Shown here in pieces: positions 3,016 through 8,924 of a stretch of DNA of 64,000 nt. Under the pieces are notes generated by a model. That model was not told the DNA's origin. It did not search any database and was given only the letters and a program-made list of their open reading frames with translations. Position numbers and translations under genes: made by a program. The stretch's first letter is position 1. The number at the start of each line of letters is the position of its first letter. This stretch comes from Vreelandella boliviensis LC1. Its GTDB lineage: Bacteria > Pseudomonadota > Gammaproteobacteria > Pseudomonadales > Halomonadaceae. Where the stretch lies: the NCBI RefSeq assembly GCF_000236035.1, contig NZ_JH393258.1, forward strand, positions 124,001-188,000. The letters run 5' to 3'.

Positions 3016-3179
3016 GTGAGATCCCTTGCTCGTCGTGCTCACCCGCACAACGCAGTTTTTTTGACCGAGCGCAGGGAAAAATAAGGGAGTAACGATAGCG
3101 TTGCGCCACCGTTCACTGCCCTAAGAACGCCCTCCGCGGCTCGGCATGGTTTGGTTCAGTTAGAACCATTACTCTCGGG

Positions 3180-3385
3180 CCGGTCTCCGGGCTGACGAGC
3201 GAAAGGCAGCATCTAAAACAGCACCTTTCCGAACGACCACCTTCCCGTGCATAAGCACAGTGGCGTTTTAGCCGTTCTTATCTCGATCACCGTTGCGGGG
3301 GCAGCGTTGGAATCACGCAAGGCGTTCACCAACTTCCCGTTTCACTAGCGGCTTTATCCACCGCCAGCACCTTAGAGTGGGCGTA
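3180..3385 (-). ncRNA. Cobalamin riboswitch upstream of btuB
   Basis: On the minus strand the leader contains the conserved core CTGCCCCCGCAACGGT followed about 30 bases later by the B12 box GCCACTG, a short loop and CGGGAAGG (around 3240-3264). These two elements are diagnostic of the adenosylcobalamin riboswitch. It lies about 165 bases before the btuB ATG. The remaining leader to 3015 contains no gene. The start and end of the aptamer are estimates. Folding it with the cobalamin covariance model would settle the limits. Confidence 0.95.
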
Positions 3386-3458
3386 AACTAGCAACTTGCC
3401 AAAGGGAGGTCAATTGAATTGGGGTGGGAGGTAAGCCGCTCAAGAAAGCCGCCAGTGG

Positions 3459-3884
3459 CTATTTGAGCGCCATCACTAACCCATGGCGCACATACCACAC
3501 CTGCTTGGCTTGGGCGGTGGCATCTTGGGTGAACCAGCCATTGAGATCACGCAGGCGGCGCTGTTCGGGCTGCATGGGCACAATTCCGCGCCCCACTTCC
3601 GTGGCGATGATGATGAGTGGGCTGTTTAGCTTGTCGGCGTGCTGGCAGAGCTTAACCATATCGCTCTGCCACTGCTGGCGCAGGATATCGGTATCGTCAC
3701 GTTCCAGAACAGCGCGGAGCCACTCAAGCACGCCTGTTATAACCAACGGCGTGTTGGCCACCAACGCTTGCTGGCTATCGATGAAGGGCCTATCAGTATC
3801 TAGACGCCACCAGTTCGCCGCGAGAAAGCGAGCGGCTACGGCGTCGCGTTTACCAGCGCAGGCACCGCCGATGAAGAGCTGCAT
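3459..3884 (-). CDS. Second CobU/CobP-family protein, degenerate
   Basis: Resembles the adenosylcobinamide kinase/guanylyltransferase family but is short (141 residues against about 180). It starts MQLFIGGACAGKRDAVAARF, with a P-loop-like GGACAGK whose usual following Ser/Thr is Arg. It lacks the RHR guanylylation-site segment. The C-terminal family block is well kept: ATEVGRGIVPMQPEQRRLRD and QVWYVRHGL. The ATG at 3884 is preferred because AGAGGA lies six bases before it; an ATG two codons upstream also exists. It overlaps the end of cobC by about 50 bases and is the last gene of the cob series before the riboswitch. It may be a partner of, or a decayed duplicate of, the cobU at 5193-5762. 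Confidence 0.7.
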   Translation of the reverse strand: MQLFIGGACAGKRDAVAARFLAANWWRLDTDRPFIDSQQALVANTPLVITGVLEWLRAVLERDDTDILRQQWQSDMVKLCQHADKLNSPLIIIATEVGRGIVPMQPEQRRLRDLNGWFTQDATAQAKQVWYVRHGLVMALK

Positions 3885-4489
3885 TGCCATTCCTCTTTGC
3901 CTTGTGCGTTTTTCTGGTAAATAAGCTGCCATCGTCTTCCTTGAGCCTGCAGCACGGAGCCATCCCAGAAGTGAAGGGTTTCAAAACGGCGGCGCAGCTC
4001 ACGAATTACGCCGCCATGGGTAACAGCTAAAATTTTGCTGTGGCCACTGGCGGGAGCGTTTAGCGCCAGATCATGTAGCCAAGCATCCAAGCGCGCGCGC
4101 AGTTGGGCCGCCGATTCGCCGCCGGGAATTTGCAGTTCGCCTACACTATCAATCCAGGCGCGGTAGTGGGGTAAGTCCTTTAGCTCGTCGTAAACTTTGC
4201 CTTCGTACTCGCCGAAATCGAGCTCGCGCAGGCGCGGCTCCAGCGTAAGGGGCACGCCTGACTTGGCGGCTTGGGCCCACGCTAGGGTTTGTTGGCAGCG
4301 GTTTAAGTCGCTTGAGTAGATGGCATCAAAACGCTCCTCCGCCAACGCTTCACGCAGTGCTAGCAGCCCCTCTTCAGCCTCGGGAAATAGCAGCGGAATA
4401 TCCTGCTGACCTTGATAACGGCGCTCTATATTCCAAGCGGTGATACCGTGGCGAACTGCCACCAGCTCCACAGTAAGATCAGTAGCCAA
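3836..4489 (-). CDS. cobC: Histidine phosphatase, probable alpha-ribazole phosphatase CobC
   Basis: Removes phosphate from alpha-ribazole 5'-phosphate (or adenosylcobalamin 5'-phosphate) in nucleotide loop assembly. The histidine phosphatase signature is near the N terminus (ELVAVRHGITAWNIERRYQG), with the second conserved His in AVTHGGVIRELRRRF and the acid residue region ELDFGEYEGKVYDEL. The frame opens with TTG at 4489, with GGGGGAGAG just upstream; a GTG seven codons later is an alternative. The start overlaps the end of cobS by about 60 bases. 217 residues fits the family. The position between cobS and a cobU-like gene supports the cobalamin role over a generic phosphoglycerate mutase-like enzyme. 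Confidence 0.85.
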   Translation of the reverse strand: MATDLTVELVAVRHGITAWNIERRYQGQQDIPLLFPEAEEGLLALREALAEERFDAIYSSDLNRCQQTLAWAQAAKSGVPLTLEPRLRELDFGEYEGKVYDELKDLPHYRAWIDSVGELQIPGGESAAQLRARLDAWLHDLALNAPASGHSKILAVTHGGVIRELRRRFETLHFWDGSVLQAQGRRWQLIYQKNAQGKEEWQCSSSSAVPALVNATP

Positions 4490-5196
4490 AGCTCTCCCCC
4501 TTCGATGGTGGCGCCTACCATATCGCCGTTAATTCCGTTAAACAGTCGCAACATTAGCCAGCGCATTAGTACCACAAAAACAGTGACCGTTAGCATCAAC
4601 ACCACCACTGCGGGCGCGAGCAGTGCTATCAGCGCCAGCGGCACCAATGCAAGTGCCACATCTTGACCGCTAAGTGACTGCTGCCAGCTCCACGCCATGC
4701 CTTGCTGCTTGGCGCAGGGAGTCAGCACCAGTAACGCTACGCCCGCCCAGCGCCCAAGCGCGGGGACTACTAATAGCCACCAGAGCGGCGCCTGGTAGGT
4801 CAGCAGTGCCCAAACCAGCACAGCCTTCCAGGCGAGTAGAAACACCAGCGCCAGCATTCCGAAGCTGCCGATTTGCGGGTCTTTCATAATTTCCCAACGG
4901 CGCGCTAATGGCTGATTGCTGCCCAGTGCATCGGCGATATCCATTACGCCGTCCAAATGCAGCCCACCCGAGAGCGCCACCCACACGCTTAGTACCGCCA
5001 AAGCGGTGATCGGCGTGGGAACGTTGTGCATAGCAAACACTGTTAGCGCCAGCACGCTACCTATCATCAACCCCACTAACGGATAGGCGCGTACTGCCCA
5101 TCGGCGGGTATCGGGCGTCCAGGGAGCAGCGATTGGAATGGGGATGCGTGTAAGGAACTGCAGCGTCAGCAACACACCGAACAAGGCATTTTTCAA
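4426..5196 (-). CDS. cobS: Adenosylcobinamide-GDP ribazoletransferase (cobalamin synthase) CobS
   Basis: Integral membrane enzyme that joins adenosylcobinamide-GDP to alpha-ribazole (phosphate), the penultimate step of B12 assembly. It begins MKNALFGVLLTLQFLTRIPI, typical of CobS, with the conserved acidic motif SGGLHLDGVMDIADALGSN (residues about 75-94) and LARRWEIMKDPQIGSFGML. Several hydrophobic segments follow. 256 residues is normal. The ATG overlaps the cobU stop (ATGA), so it is coupled to cobU. Confidence 0.95.
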   Translation of the reverse strand: MKNALFGVLLTLQFLTRIPIPIAAPWTPDTRRWAVRAYPLVGLMIGSVLALTVFAMHNVPTPITALAVLSVWVALSGGLHLDGVMDIADALGSNQPLARRWEIMKDPQIGSFGMLALVFLLAWKAVLVWALLTYQAPLWWLLVVPALGRWAGVALLVLTPCAKQQGMAWSWQQSLSGQDVALALVPLALIALLAPAVVVLMLTVTVFVVLMRWLMLRLFNGINGDMVGATIEGGELWLLILLWSWWQFATVSPLGI

Positions 5197-5762
5197 ACGC
5201 TTACCTCCTTACCATGCTTCCACTGCTTATCTTTCCATGTCAGTACACTGCCTGCGACGATTTCGAGTACTGTGTCAGCCTCTGCCGCTACCCAGTGGTG
5301 GGCACGCTGTAGAAAAGCCAAATAGCGCCATGTTTCCGCATCAGTAGGCGGCAGTGCTTCGTTAATATCATTGGAAACAATCACCAAATGCACGCTGCGT
5401 GCTCGGGCATCATTAAGTGTATCTACCAGCAGCGCCAAACCCTCCTCGTCGCTTATCTCACTGGCATACAGGACTTGGCTGGTCCAGAGGGTTAGGCAAT
5501 CAAGCAGCACGGCGCTACCATCTGGCACCTTGGCAATCGCTTGATCAATTCGTAGCGGTGCCTCAATCGTTTTCCACTGCACGTTTTGCCACTGCTCTTG
5601 CCTGGTTTGACGGTGGCGAGCCACTCTTTCGTCCATTTCGTCGTCGTACACTTCTGCGGTGGCTAAGTAGTAACAGGGCGAATTGCCCGCTGCACTCACC
5701 ACTCGCTGCTCTGCTATCTGGCTTTTTCCCGAGCGCGCCCCGCCGCTAACGAAGACAATCAT
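5193..5762 (-). CDS. cobU: Bifunctional adenosylcobinamide kinase / guanylyltransferase CobU (CobP)
   Basis: Phosphorylates adenosylcobinamide and transfers GMP to make adenosylcobinamide-GDP. The P-loop GGARSGKS is at residues 7-14 and the guanylylated His segment is in DERVARHRQTRQEQW, with LLDCLTLW in the middle. In contrast to typical members, the C-terminal block that normally reads NEVG.GIVP is NDINEALPPTDAETWRYLAF here. That block is present in the short paralogue at 3459-3884. Start and stop overlap the neighbouring cobD and cobS genes by four bases each. Confidence 0.9.
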   Translation of the reverse strand: MIVFVSGGARSGKSQIAEQRVVSAAGNSPCYYLATAEVYDDEMDERVARHRQTRQEQWQNVQWKTIEAPLRIDQAIAKVPDGSAVLLDCLTLWTSQVLYASEISDEEGLALLVDTLNDARARSVHLVIVSNDINEALPPTDAETWRYLAFLQRAHHWVAAEADTVLEIVAGSVLTWKDKQWKHGKEVSV

Positions 5763-6877
5763 GCAGTTCCTTTTTCCAAAACATTTTTCAACACGCTTAT
5801 TAGCCGTCGATTAGCAGCGACATCGCGTAGCGCCACCCGCAGCCAGCCGCCGTGGAGCCCGGCAAAATTATGGGTATGACGAACCAAAACACCCTGGCGT
5901 AGCAGCTGCTCAAACAGCGCAGCACTGCTAATTTCATGCATGGCACCAGGCCGGATAAGAAAAAAACACGCGTGGCTGGGCACGACTTCTAACCCTAACT
6001 CAGTAAGCGCTTGAGCCATACGCGGACGCTCGCTGGCCAGCCACCGCTGGGTGCGCCGGGCAAAGGCATCATCCGCCAGCAACGGCGCCACCAGTTCAGC
6101 TGCGAGGTGATTGACGCTCCAGGGCGGCTGGTGGGCCTGTGCCGCTTGAACAGTCACAGCATCCGCCAGCAGGTAACCCAGCCGAAGCCCTGGCAGGGTA
6201 TAAAACTTGGTCATGGAGTGCAGCAGCATCAGATGCGGGTAGCGCGCCAACAGCGGTGCCAACGACGCCTCTGTTGGCGCCTCACCCATCGTCTCTCCCA
6301 CCATGTCGATAAAGGCTTCGTCGACCACAACGCGGCAACCAATTGCAGCGGTGTAATTCAACAAGGTCTCCATTGCAGGGATATCGATAAGCGTAGCGGT
6401 AGGATTATTGGGGCGGCATAGAAACAGCACATCAGTGTCGCTTAACGCTTCCAGCAGCGAGTCAACGTCCAGCGTAAAGTGCGGCGCGGGCAGCGCGATC
6501 TCGCTGATTGAAAGCCGATGGGCACAGCAAGCGCGGGCATACTCGCCAAAGCTTGGGGTAATAATCGCCGCGCGCTTACCCGCATGCAGCGCGGCGACGA
6601 GGAAAATAGCCTCAGCGCCGCCGTTAGTCAGCAGTACCTGTTCTGGCTGAAGCTGGTGATGGGAGGCGATGGCCTGACGAGCAGCGGGATAATCGGGCGC
6701 AGGGTAGCGTTCAAGACCTGTCAGCTGTTTTGCTAACCAATCGCTAACCCACGCTGGCGGCCCCAAGGGATTGAGGTTGGCGCTAAAGTCGTCCAGGCGT
6801 TGATCGGCGGGCAACCCAAAGTGGGCTAACAGCGCTTCGGCCTGGCCGCCGTGGATGGGCCATATAAATTTGCTCAT
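5759..6877 (-). CDS. cobD: Threonine-phosphate decarboxylase / aminotransferase-like enzyme CobD (CobC of Pseudomonas nomenclature)
   Basis: PLP enzyme of the class I/II aminotransferase fold that makes (R)-1-amino-2-propanol phosphate, the aminopropanol linker of B12. The N terminus IHGGQAEALLAHFG and DFSANLNPLGPP are typical of this family. The PLP lysine is in LHSMTKFYTLPGLRLGYLL (about residues 222-240), with LTNGGAEAIFLVA and FLCRPNNPTATL before it. 372 residues. It sits between cbiB, which uses the linker, and cobU, with an 8-base gap to cbiB and ATGA overlap with cobU. An unrelated histidinol-phosphate aminotransferase is unlikely in this context. Confidence 0.92.
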   Translation of the reverse strand: MSKFIWPIHGGQAEALLAHFGLPADQRLDDFSANLNPLGPPAWVSDWLAKQLTGLERYPAPDYPAARQAIASHHQLQPEQVLLTNGGAEAIFLVAALHAGKRAAIITPSFGEYARACCAHRLSISEIALPAPHFTLDVDSLLEALSDTDVLFLCRPNNPTATLIDIPAMETLLNYTAAIGCRVVVDEAFIDMVGETMGEAPTEASLAPLLARYPHLMLLHSMTKFYTLPGLRLGYLLADAVTVQAAQAHQPPWSVNHLAAELVAPLLADDAFARRTQRWLASERPRMAQALTELGLEVVPSHACFFLIRPGAMHEISSAALFEQLLRQGVLVRHTHNFAGLHGGWLRVALRDVAANRRLISVLKNVLEKGTA

Positions 6878-6885
6878 AATAGCCC

Positions 6886-7875
6886 CTAAAAAATGAATAG
6901 TAGCCCCGTCATCACGACCACTGACAGCAACATAAATAGCATCCAGGCACCGTGCATTAAGCTAACTGTAGCGCTGATATGGGCAACACGCAGCGGCTCA
7001 AGCGGCTTGCCCAAGGTCGCCTGGTGTGAAGCCACGCCTTGGTAAAAATTAGTCCCCCCGAGTTGCACACCCAGCAGCCGGGCTACCATGGCCTCTGACC
7101 AGCCGGCGTTGGGGCTGGGATGGTGGGGTGCATCTCTGCAGGTGCCGCGCAATGCGCCTTGCCAGCGCAGGGTCAAAACACCTGATGCACAGAGTAGCAG
7201 GCCAGCGAGCCATAGGCACAGCGCGGTCAAGCGTGCGGGCGCCCAGTTAACCACATCGTCCAACTTGGCGGAGGCATAACCGAAATCAGCATAGCGTTCG
7301 TTTTTGTAACCTACCATCGAATCCAGGGTATTAACCGCTTTATACGCCAGCGCTAGCGGCGCCCCGCCGATCAGGGCAAAAAATAGTGGGGCGGTAATGC
7401 CGTCAACGGTGTTTTCCGCCACGGTTTCCACCGTGCCGCGGGTGATATCCGCTTCATCCAAGTTTTGCGTATCGCGCCCTACTATCATTCCCAGCGCCTT
7501 GCGTGCGGCAGGCAAATCGCCTTTGGTCAGCGGCTCGACCACGGCCCGGGCCGCGTCGCCCAAGCCTTTAATCGCCAGTGTCGTCGAGAGCAGCCAAAGC
7601 TCGGCTATCAATGCTAGGCCAGGATGCAAGCGTTCCAGCAGCGCCAGCGCTAGCCAGCTAATCCCCCCTACGCCGCAGACGACAATAATCGTTAGCAGGA
7701 AACCGCTGACTCTGCGCTGCCGCGGTGTACCGCGATTCCACAGCCGCTCAAAAGCGCTGATTAAGCGCCCGATTAGTACCACCGGGTGAGGCCAGGAACG
7801 CGGATCACCAACAATTAAATCAATTGCGATCGCTAAGATGATCAGAACAATACCGCCAAAAGTGGCGCCTACCAT
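6886..7875 (-). CDS. cbiB: Adenosylcobinamide-phosphate synthase CbiB (CobD of Pseudomonas nomenclature)
   Basis: Membrane enzyme that attaches the aminopropanol (phosphate) linker to adenosylcobyric acid. Recognised by IAIDLIVGDPRSWPHPVVLIG near the N terminus, the block VGRDTQNLDEADITRG, ETVAENTVDGITAPLFFAL and YKAVNTLDSMVGYKNERY. Several hydrophobic segments, about 329 residues. The start is read as the ATG at 7875, which shares bases with the cobT stop (TGATG); a GTG one codon earlier is equally in frame. It is the second gene of the cobT-led unit. Confidence 0.94.
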   Translation of the reverse strand: MVGATFGGIVLIILAIAIDLIVGDPRSWPHPVVLIGRLISAFERLWNRGTPRQRRVSGFLLTIIVVCGVGGISWLALALLERLHPGLALIAELWLLSTTLAIKGLGDAARAVVEPLTKGDLPAARKALGMIVGRDTQNLDEADITRGTVETVAENTVDGITAPLFFALIGGAPLALAYKAVNTLDSMVGYKNERYADFGYASAKLDDVVNWAPARLTALCLWLAGLLLCASGVLTLRWQGALRGTCRDAPHHPSPNAGWSEAMVARLLGVQLGGTNFYQGVASHQATLGKPLEPLRVAHISATVSLMHGAWMLFMLLSVVVMTGLLFIF

Positions 7876-8924
7876 CACGGCGCTGCCTTATCGCTAACAC
7901 CAGCATCGGCAAAAGTAGCCATTTCCGCCACCATGGCTGTCGCCGCTTGCAGCAATGGATACGCAAGCGCCGCGCCGCTCCCTTCTCCTAACCGCATGGC
8001 CATATCGAGTAGTGGTTTGGCCTCCAGCACTTTTAACGCTACATCGTGGCCTGGCTCCTGGGAGCGATGACCAAAAATCAAATAGCCACGCACGGCGGGG
8101 CATATTCTACAGGCGATGAGCGCGGCGACGGAGGCAATAAAGCCATCCACAATCGCAGGCATCTGATTGGCCGCGGCTGCCAAATAGGCGCCGGTCATAG
8201 CGGCAATCTCCAGGCCGCCTAGCTTGGCCAGCACCTCTAGAGGGGCCTGGGGGTCAGCGTTACGCGCAGCGATAGCGCGTTCAATCACCGCTACTTTGTG
8301 CGTCTGCTGCTGTGGGTTAATCCCCGTTCCCGCACCCACCACGCTTGCCACCGACTCACCTGTTAGTACCGCCAATACCGCGCTGCTAGCAGTCGTATTG
8401 GCAATGCCCATTTCACCGACAATAATACACTTTGCACCCGATTTTTTTGCTCGTTCCACGCCAGCCACACCCACATTAATAGCCGCAATGGCTTCAGCCG
8501 ATTGCATCGCGTCTTCGTCCACCATATTGGCAGTGCCATGGCGCACCTTGGCAGAGGTCACACCAGGCAGTATTAAGGACGAAGCTACGCCTACGTCTAC
8601 GATCTCGACCTGCGCGCCTATCTGACGGGCAAAGACATTAATCGCCGCCCCTCCGTTGGCAAAGTTGGTCACCATTTGGGCGGTCACTGCTTGGGGAAAG
8701 GCGGACACCCCCTCTGCGGCAACGCCATGATCGGCGGCAAACACAATCACCGCAGGCGGCGTTACGCTGGGCTTGAGTTCACCGGTGATTGCGCTCAGCT
8801 GAATAGCTAAATCTTCTAAGGCTCCCAAACTACCTGGCGGCTTGGTCAGCGTATCCAAGTAGCGTCGCGTCGCTTCACCAGCCTTGAGGTCAACTGACTG
8901 AATGTGGTCAACAATAGCGTGCAT
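7875..8924 (-). CDS. cobT: Nicotinate-nucleotide-dimethylbenzimidazole phosphoribosyltransferase CobT
   Basis: Activates the lower ligand by making alpha-ribazole phosphate from dimethylbenzimidazole and nicotinate mononucleotide. The start region has LTKPPGSLGALEDLAIQL, then VFAADHGVAAEGVSAFPQAV, GGAAINVFARQ, GEMGIANTTASSAVLAVLTG and DPQAPLEVLAKLGGLEIAAM, all characteristic. 349 residues is standard. GGAG stands five bases before the ATG. First gene of the minus-strand cob unit, so the promoter should lie in 8925-9205; no second cobalamin riboswitch was seen there. Confidence 0.96.
   Translation of the reverse strand: MHAIVDHIQSVDLKAGEATRRYLDTLTKPPGSLGALEDLAIQLSAITGELKPSVTPPAVIVFAADHGVAAEGVSAFPQAVTAQMVTNFANGGAAINVFARQIGAQVEIVDVGVASSLILPGVTSAKVRHGTANMVDEDAMQSAEAIAAINVGVAGVERAKKSGAKCIIVGEMGIANTTASSAVLAVLTGESVASVVGAGTGINPQQQTHKVAVIERAIAARNADPQAPLEVLAKLGGLEIAAMTGAYLAAAANQMPAIVDGFIASVAALIACRICPAVRGYLIFGHRSQEPGHDVALKVLEAKPLLDMAMRLGEGSGAALAYPLLQAATAMVAEMATFADAGVSDKAAP

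What the first reader, a model, noticed from the sequence alone, without database searches (positions are those of the whole stretch)
3459..5762. Two CobU-family proteins with complementary motif losses
The gene at 5193 has the P-loop and the RHR guanylylation segment but lacks the usual C-terminal NEVG-GIVP block; the short gene at 3459 has that C-terminal block but a damaged P-loop and no RHR segment. Both are in one cob unit. They may work as partners, or the small one is a decayed copy kept for another role.
Basis: seen in the sequence. Interest (0 to 1): 0.5.

Follow-up and report, generated by a model that had tools for sequence, protein, structure and literature searches.

The report
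B12 enzyme split between two genes
In many salt-loving bacteria the single vitamin B12 enzyme CobU seems to have been replaced by two related proteins that are inherited together, each keeping the half of the conserved residues that the other has lost, so they very probably work only as a pair.

Summary
The gene at 5193-5762 (L) and the small gene at 3459-3884 (S; likely start 3884, 141 aa) are both CobU-family proteins. Seven canonical N-terminal residues (R9, S13, H46, R50, D80, C81, N134, Salmonella numbering) are all present in 113 of 113 L and 0 of 112 S. Seven C-terminal ones (E135, G137, G139, R148, D152, G155, Q159) are all present in 101 of 112 S and 0 of 113 L. Of 275 genomes of the family, 169 have L-type CobU and 168 of these also have S; in the exception L's contig ends inside cobS. 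The 31 genomes with ordinary CobU have no S. S is under purifying selection (median dN/dS 0.22) and models as a CobU fold without the guanylylation helix. Best reading: L and S form an obligate heteromeric CobU; L carries the nucleotide/His face, and S supplies across a subunit interface the face L lost. Physical contact, trans completion and activity are inferred, not shown. I found no description in the papers searched.

The parts
5193..5762 (-). L: long CobU-family protein, 189 aa; keeps P-loop, guanylylation His and Walker-B residues; C-terminal block rewritten
   Evidence: AF2 model pLDDT 91.8; Foldseek best hits are CobU structures
5721..5744 (-). P-loop of L, GGARSGKS (residues 7-14)
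   Evidence: sequence
5613..5615 (-). His50 of L, aligned with His46 of Salmonella CobU
5295..5378 (-). Rewritten C-terminal block of L (VSNDINEALPPTDAETWRYLAFLQRAHH), where ordinary CobU has NE-G-G-VP-R-D-G-Q
3459..3884 (-). S: short CobU-family protein, 141 aa from ATG 3884; lacks the guanylylation helix, P-loop degenerate, C-terminal block intact
   Evidence: AF2 model pLDDT 93.3; CobU fold Z about 17
3846..3869 (-). Degenerate P-loop of S, GGACAGKR (residues 6-13)
3522..3599 (-). Intact C-terminal block of S (EVGRGIVPMQPEQRRLRDLNGWFTQD)
4426..5196 (-). cobS, between L and S
   Evidence: PF02654; TIGR00317 over cut-off
3836..4489 (-). cobC-type phosphatase, immediately upstream of S and overlapping it by 49 bases
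   Evidence: PF00300; best model TIGR03162, below its cut-off
5759..6877 (-). cobD-type threonine-phosphate decarboxylase
   Evidence: TIGR01140 over cut-off
6886..7878 (-). cbiB
   Evidence: TIGR00380 over cut-off
7875..8924 (-). cobT
   Evidence: TIGR03160 over cut-off
3161..3389 (-). Cobalamin riboswitch between S and btuB
   Evidence: RF00174, 103 bits

Best explanation
[quoted passage not shown] In ordinary CobU each subunit would carry two active-site faces: face A (P-loop, guanylylated His, Walker B) and face B (the E135-Q159 block), and face B would dock onto face A of the neighbouring subunit. After duplication L kept face A and lost B, and S kept B and lost A, so a working site forms only where face A of L meets face B of S. 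Shown here: the reciprocal motif retention, the joint inheritance, the replacement of ordinary CobU, selection on both genes, and the CobU fold of both models. Inferred: duplication as the origin, physical contact, completion of the site in trans, and catalytic activity.
For: (1) Reciprocal retention. Positions 9, 13, 46, 50, 80, 81, 134 read RSHRDCN in 91 of 91 ordinary CobUs, 113 of 113 L and 0 of 112 S. Positions 135, 137, 139, 148, 152, 155, 159 read EGGRDGQ in 88 of 91 ordinary CobUs, 101 of 112 S and 0 of 113 L (both sets chosen after seeing the column table). Over all 61 conserved columns: up to 134, 26 are kept by L alone and 2 by S alone; from 135 on, 4 by L alone and 8 by S alone (Fisher p 0.0002). 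If both sets acted within one subunit, neither protein could work. (2) Co-inheritance: L in 169 of 275 family genomes, S in 168, every S genome an L genome, S in none of the 31 with ordinary CobU; the one gap is a contig end. (3) Replacement: in a sample of 201, CobS is in 143 genomes; all 143 have the pair (113) or ordinary CobU (30). (4) Median dN/dS over 105 close pairs: S 0.22, L 0.19, cobS 0.17. (5) S models as a CobU fold lacking the His-bearing helix (pLDDT 93.3; Z 16.5-17.7 to CobU against 12.2 or less to RecA). (6) Of the 112 fetched pair regions, 111 hold both genes, as does the window; in the last (G163) an inserted island separates L from cobS, yet S is still present about 9.6 kb downstream of L. 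(7) Replacement residues are themselves fixed (D135 113/113, N137 112/113 in L; G81 108/112, V16 111/112 in S), which argues against decay.
Against: No complex was predicted or measured; the tools model one chain. I could not verify that E135-Q159 of ordinary CobU touches a neighbouring subunit: the structure papers are not held and no coordinates were available. Residue covariation is inconclusive: predicted cross-face pairs are enriched among the top 1% over all 112 pairs (13 of 1637 label rotations as high) and outside genus g1 (6 of 1434), but not within g1 (686 of 1286), and not by mean score in any of the three sets. Partial distance correlation of L with S (0.31, 107 genomes) is the highest that either gene has, but cobS-cobD is higher (0.33), so it is not special. 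The genomes share ancestry, so 168 joint occurrences are not independent. The 60 ordinary CobUs from outside the family are the best-scoring loci of two searches and so lean towards typical members.
Confidence: 0.68

Rival explanations
1. L alone is the catalytic, self-assembling CobU with a lineage-specific C-terminal block; S is a needed non-catalytic subunit that regulates it or anchors it to the membrane-bound CobS/CobC assembly, without completing the active site.
For: S lies directly after cobC or cobS in 112 of 112 loci where it was placed and overlaps cobC in the window. A CobS-anchored complex of the late enzymes, with CobU as a likely member, has been proposed (passages of PMC8749415). 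L keeps all seven N-terminal residues in 113 of 113.
Against: It does not explain why S keeps the very seven residues that L lost and that are near-invariant in ordinary CobU (101 of 112 against 0 of 113). A scaffold role needs none of them in particular.
Confidence: 0.18
2. S is a decayed copy retained for an unrelated job, for example a corrinoid or nucleotide sensor.
For: S has lost P-loop Ser13, the Walker-B Cys and the whole His46 segment in 112 of 112.
Against: Co-occurrence with L and never with ordinary CobU; purifying selection; conserved place in the cob unit. The seven listed genomes of pair genera without CobU (G162, G186, G190, G019, G038, G039, G051) also lack CobS, so the genes go with the pathway.
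Confidence: 0.08
3. Division of the two reactions: L does one (kinase or guanylyl transfer) and S does the other independently.
For: CobU has two activities and there are two genes.
Against: S lacks the guanylylated His, the P-loop Ser and the Walker-B Cys in 112 of 112 and the Walker-B Asp in all but about 6%, so it is unlikely to catalyse either step alone. The pair occurs with (60 of 113) and without (53 of 113) the de novo marker CbiC, so it is not tied to a route that needs only one reaction.
Confidence: 0.04

Closest known systems
CobU / CobP, bifunctional adenosylcobinamide kinase / guanylyltransferase (PF02283; structures 1CBU, 1C9K, 7TM8, 8YEP, 9VIO)
   Same: Same fold by model comparison, same pathway position, same late cob gene neighbourhood; L keeps the N-terminal residue set and S the C-terminal one.
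   Different: Two genes instead of one; each protein lacks one of the two near-invariant residue sets; S lacks the guanylylation helix and a normal P-loop.
Akkermansia muciniphila CobU (9VIO), best sequence match of L among solved chains
   Same: Shares the letters DAET with L within the C-terminal block.
   Different: It keeps E-G-G-R-D-G-Q in the printed alignment, so it is ordinary in the respect that matters.
Catalytic/non-catalytic paralogue pairs of RecA-fold rings, such as F1-ATPase beta/alpha (analogy, recalled)
   Same: Would work alike: one paralogue carries the catalytic nucleotide site, the other completes it from the neighbouring position.
   Different: Different family and reaction; here even the P-loop of the non-catalytic partner is degenerate, and assembly size is unknown.
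CobY, non-homologous archaeal guanylyltransferase
   Same: Another departure from bacterial CobU (passages of PMC4626045).
   Different: Unrelated protein without kinase activity; L and S are both CobU homologues.

Membership tests
CobU (PF02283), applied to L | Match above the curated Pfam cut-off over the whole domain | tested here: met
   135 bits against cut-off 27, profile 1-166 of 168
CobU equivalog model PRK05800.1 (NCBIfam NF004469), applied to L and S | Score above the curated equivalog cut-off (161 bits) | tested here: not met
   L 118.6 bits, S 57.1 bits
CobU (PF02283), applied to L | P-loop, guanylylated His46 and Walker-B Asp-Cys | tested here: met
   RSHRDCN in 113 of 113 L proteins
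CobU (PF02283), applied to L | C-terminal residues E135, G137, G139, R148, D152, G155, Q159 | tested here: not met
   complete in 0 of 113 L proteins, against 88 of 91 ordinary CobUs
CobU (PF02283), applied to S | Match above the curated Pfam cut-off | tested here: met
   Window S 58.6 bits against 27; PF02283 matched by 81 of 81 scanned S members at E up to 0.01
CobU (PF02283), applied to S | Functional P-loop and guanylylated His | tested here: not met
   Ser13 in 0 of 112; His46 segment absent in 112 of 112
CobU (PF02283), applied to S | C-terminal residue set EGGRDGQ | tested here: met
   101 of 112 exact; 8 more differ only by D at 135
CobU, applied to L plus S together | Kinase and guanylyltransferase activity | not testable with these tools
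   needs purified proteins or complementation
CobU, applied to L plus S together | Oligomer with shared active sites | not testable with these tools
   no two-chain modelling offered; the indirect covariation test was inconclusive

The most novel reading that the evidence does not exclude
The pair is a reciprocally specialised ring enzyme. L and S alternate, giving two kinds of interface: a catalytic one (face A of L with face B of S) and a structural one (the fixed degenerate P-loop face of S with the fixed rewritten block of L). A three-membered ring cannot alternate, so the assembly should have left the trimer recalled for ordinary CobU for a dimer or an even-numbered ring, much as F1-ATPase has catalytic and non-catalytic sites.
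Probability: 0.3. Interest if true: 0.78.

Novelty: new variant of a known kind. Interest (0 to 1): 0.62.

Why it matters
If true, it is a clean natural case of a self-assembling enzyme turned into an obligate two-protein enzyme by reciprocal loss of active-site faces, seen in 168 species, with 31 related species that kept the ordinary form as controls. It says which CobU residues must act together and makes the role of the E135-Q159 block testable by simple complementation. It also has a practical side: neither protein of the window reaches the curated NCBIfam cut-off for CobU, so automatic B12-pathway predictions may misread these genomes.

Tried and rejected
Rejected: frameshift or sequencing artefact (two separate genes, repeated in 168 genomes). 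Rejected: chance resemblance of S to CobU (81 of 81 S members hit PF02283; fold match). Rejected: S restricted to the window's genus (10 genera). Wider distribution not seen: in 274 class and 293 order genomes (both sets include a few family members) no L/S-like pair was found outside the family. Eight genomes outside the family had two PF02283 matches and were looked at again: three carry two full-length ordinary copies (G388, G414, G422), four carry short N-terminal fragments or a split match (G751, G244, G213, G394), and one a second match below the cut-off (G452); none has an S-like C-terminal piece. A scan of the 84,980-species collection with an S alignment confirmed 128 loci; the 80 kept are all titled Halomonas, Vreelandella, Billgrantia, Onishia, Aidingimonas or Halovibrio; the other 48 were not shown. 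The searched genomes themselves are unnamed; I call their family Halomonadaceae from those titles.

Led nowhere or inconclusive: placing S in a tree. S forms one clade on a very long branch, so its duplication partner is unresolved. L joins ordinary CobUs of family genus g5 with SH-aLRT 91 in a quick tree of 94 rows, also on a long branch. Distance and residue covariation. Looking up the original CobU structure, His46 and CobP papers (not held). Paper searches: sought CobU structure and mechanism, Halomonas B12 genes, paired or truncated cobU, general analogues. Only listings were seen, plus passages of four papers. Nothing on a split or paired CobU appeared; two searches returned 2 and 1 papers, unrelated by title; one search returned none. 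The library lacks most subscription journals.

Counting notes: motif counts use the 113 L and 112 S proteins from the first 201-genome sample, window included. L160 (G163) had no S inside its fetched region and is missing from the 112, though S lies elsewhere on its contig. The 56 further L genomes among the 275 (55 with S) were judged by profile hits only. Structure models used 81 S and 75 L rows chosen at under 88% identity, not all. dN/dS pairs were limited to dS 0.05-1.5 in all three genes and are not independent. G146's third PF02283 hit is below the cut-off. G781 has two L-type hits and one S. Counts were rechecked by typing the handle lists into a script.

Full report
What is there. The cob unit lies on the minus strand: cobT (8924-7875), cbiB (7878-6886), a cobD-type decarboxylase (6877-5759), L (5762-5193), cobS (5196-4426), a cobC-type phosphatase (4489-3836) and S (3884-3459), then a cobalamin riboswitch (3389-3161) and btuB (btuB and btuF are named from their sequence and place, not from a profile call). 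L matches the Pfam CobU model over its length; S matches only positions 73-167. They are the only two CobU-family hits in the window's genome. The likely start of S is ATG 3884: at that position 108 of 112 S genes have ATG and 4 GTG. That gives 141 aa rather than the 157 read first.

The motif pattern. I aligned 113 L, 112 S, 31 ordinary CobUs of the family and 60 other gammaproteobacterial CobUs (the best-scoring loci), with the Salmonella chain of 1C9K as ruler. Sixty-one columns are at least 85% one residue in the 91 ordinary CobUs. L keeps 39 at 80% or more, S keeps 19, both keep 9, and 12 are kept by neither. Up to N134 the tally is 26 L only, 2 S only, 6 both, 9 neither; from E135 on it is 8 S only, 4 L only, 3 both, 3 neither (Fisher p 0.0002 on the single-keeper columns). 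As whole signatures, chosen after seeing that table, RSHRDCN (9, 13, 46, 50, 80, 81, 134) is in 91 of 91 ordinary, 113 of 113 L and 0 of 112 S; EGGRDGQ (135, 137, 139, 148, 152, 155, 159) is in 88 of 91 ordinary, 0 of 113 L and 101 of 112 S. The S P-loop is itself conserved in altered form: Ala10 in 102, Lys12 in 104 and Arg13 in 99 of 112, with Lys12 changed to Arg in 8. So neither copy looks as if it were drifting; the lost faces have been rewritten and largely fixed.

Distribution. The family search covered all 275 held genomes of the window's family. Two hundred have CobU: 31 with one high-scoring ordinary copy (168-205 bits) and 169 with the lower-scoring L type (151 bits or less). An S profile at E up to 1e-30 finds S in 168 genomes, in 10 of 24 genera. 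Compared by handle, these are exactly the L genomes less G783, and none is an ordinary-CobU genome. In G783, L sits on a 12,352-base contig whose first bases lie inside a cobS-like frame (recognised by eye), so the S position is not assembled. In the 201-genome sample CobS occurs in 143; all have the pair (113) or ordinary CobU (30), and G076 has ordinary CobU without a CobS match. The de novo marker CbiC is in 82 of 201: 60 of 113 pair genomes, 21 of 31 ordinary ones and one without CobU. So the pair is found with and without the de novo marker. Outside the family, 274 class and 293 order genomes (each set with a few family members) show no other such pair, and the eight with two matches have no S-like piece. 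A scan of 84,980 named species with an S alignment confirmed 128 loci; the 80 shown are all Halomonadaceae by title.

Gene order. Of 8 ordinary-CobU loci fetched with flanks, 5 read cobT-cobS-cobU-(cobC)-cbiB-(cobD). Of 113 pair loci, 80 read cobT-cbiB-cobD-L-cobS-cobC-S-btuB and the others are close variants or cut off earlier. L and S share strand in all 112 loci where both were seen, 724 to 1484 bases apart by open frame. In G163 an island with type I restriction-modification-like frames (by eye) sits between L and cobS; S is still present, about 9.6 kb downstream of L.

Selection and history. Over 105 close genome pairs, median dN/dS is 0.19 for L, 0.22 for S and 0.17 for cobS. In a quick tree of 94 rows L and S are each one clade; L groups with ordinary CobU of family genus g5 (SH-aLRT 91), and S sits on a branch of length 3.2 whose place is unsure. 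A duplication within the family is therefore likely for L and only assumed for S.

Structure. AF2 models are confident: S pLDDT 93.3, L 91.8. Foldseek ranks CobU structures first for both. VIA-align gives S Z 16.5-17.7 to CobU against 12.2 or less for RecA. In the model S lacks the strand and helix that carry the His in L. Several solved CobU entries hold three or six chains (7TM8, 8YEP and 9VIT three, 8YES six), in keeping with the trimer I recall for Salmonella CobU; others hold fewer.

Mechanism. Two residue sets that are both near-invariant in ordinary CobU should both be needed. Here no single protein has both, together the two proteins have all of them, and they are inherited as a unit in place of ordinary CobU. 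The simplest account is that the two sets meet across a subunit interface, with L giving the nucleotide and His face and S the other face. This rests on inference; cis or trans placement of the E135-Q159 block was not checked on coordinates. Two indirect tests are weak: distance covariation singles out L-S only slightly (partial r 0.31, against 0.33 for cobS-cobD), and residue covariation favours the predicted faces in the whole set and outside genus g1, but not within g1 and not by mean score.

What is known. CobU is described as one bifunctional enzyme in bacteria, with CobY as the archaeal substitute (passages of PMC7242693 and PMC4626045). A CobS-anchored complex of late enzymes has been proposed (passages of PMC8749415), which keeps a scaffold role for S possible. 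Nine paper searches, of which only listings were seen apart from passages of four papers, gave no report of a split or paired CobU. I file it as a new variant of a known kind.

Noticed in passing
L026:289-2136 (minus), genome G024: In one ordinary-CobU genome of the family, CobU and CobT lie in one 616-aa open frame (CobU 46-212, phosphoribosyltransferase 276-612), apparently a natural fusion of two late B12 enzymes.
   Followed up: partly
L160, about 3894-7501 (G163): An island with type I restriction-modification-like frames (hsdM- and hsdS-like, identified by eye) lies in the cob unit between L and cobS, yet cobS and S are retained downstream.
   Followed up: partly
window 3161-3389: The only cobalamin riboswitch found in the first 12 kb at the gathering threshold precedes btuB, downstream of the cob unit; none was found upstream of cobT, so the unit's own regulation is unclear.
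   Followed up: no
genus g1 genomes G162, G186, G190: These genomes of a pair-bearing genus show no match for CobU, CobS or S, suggesting loss of nucleotide-loop assembly as a block.
   Followed up: partly
L174, L114, L150 and similar: In some members S or L lies inside a much longer stop-to-stop frame; I take these for composition effects, not fusions, but did not test it.
   Followed up: no
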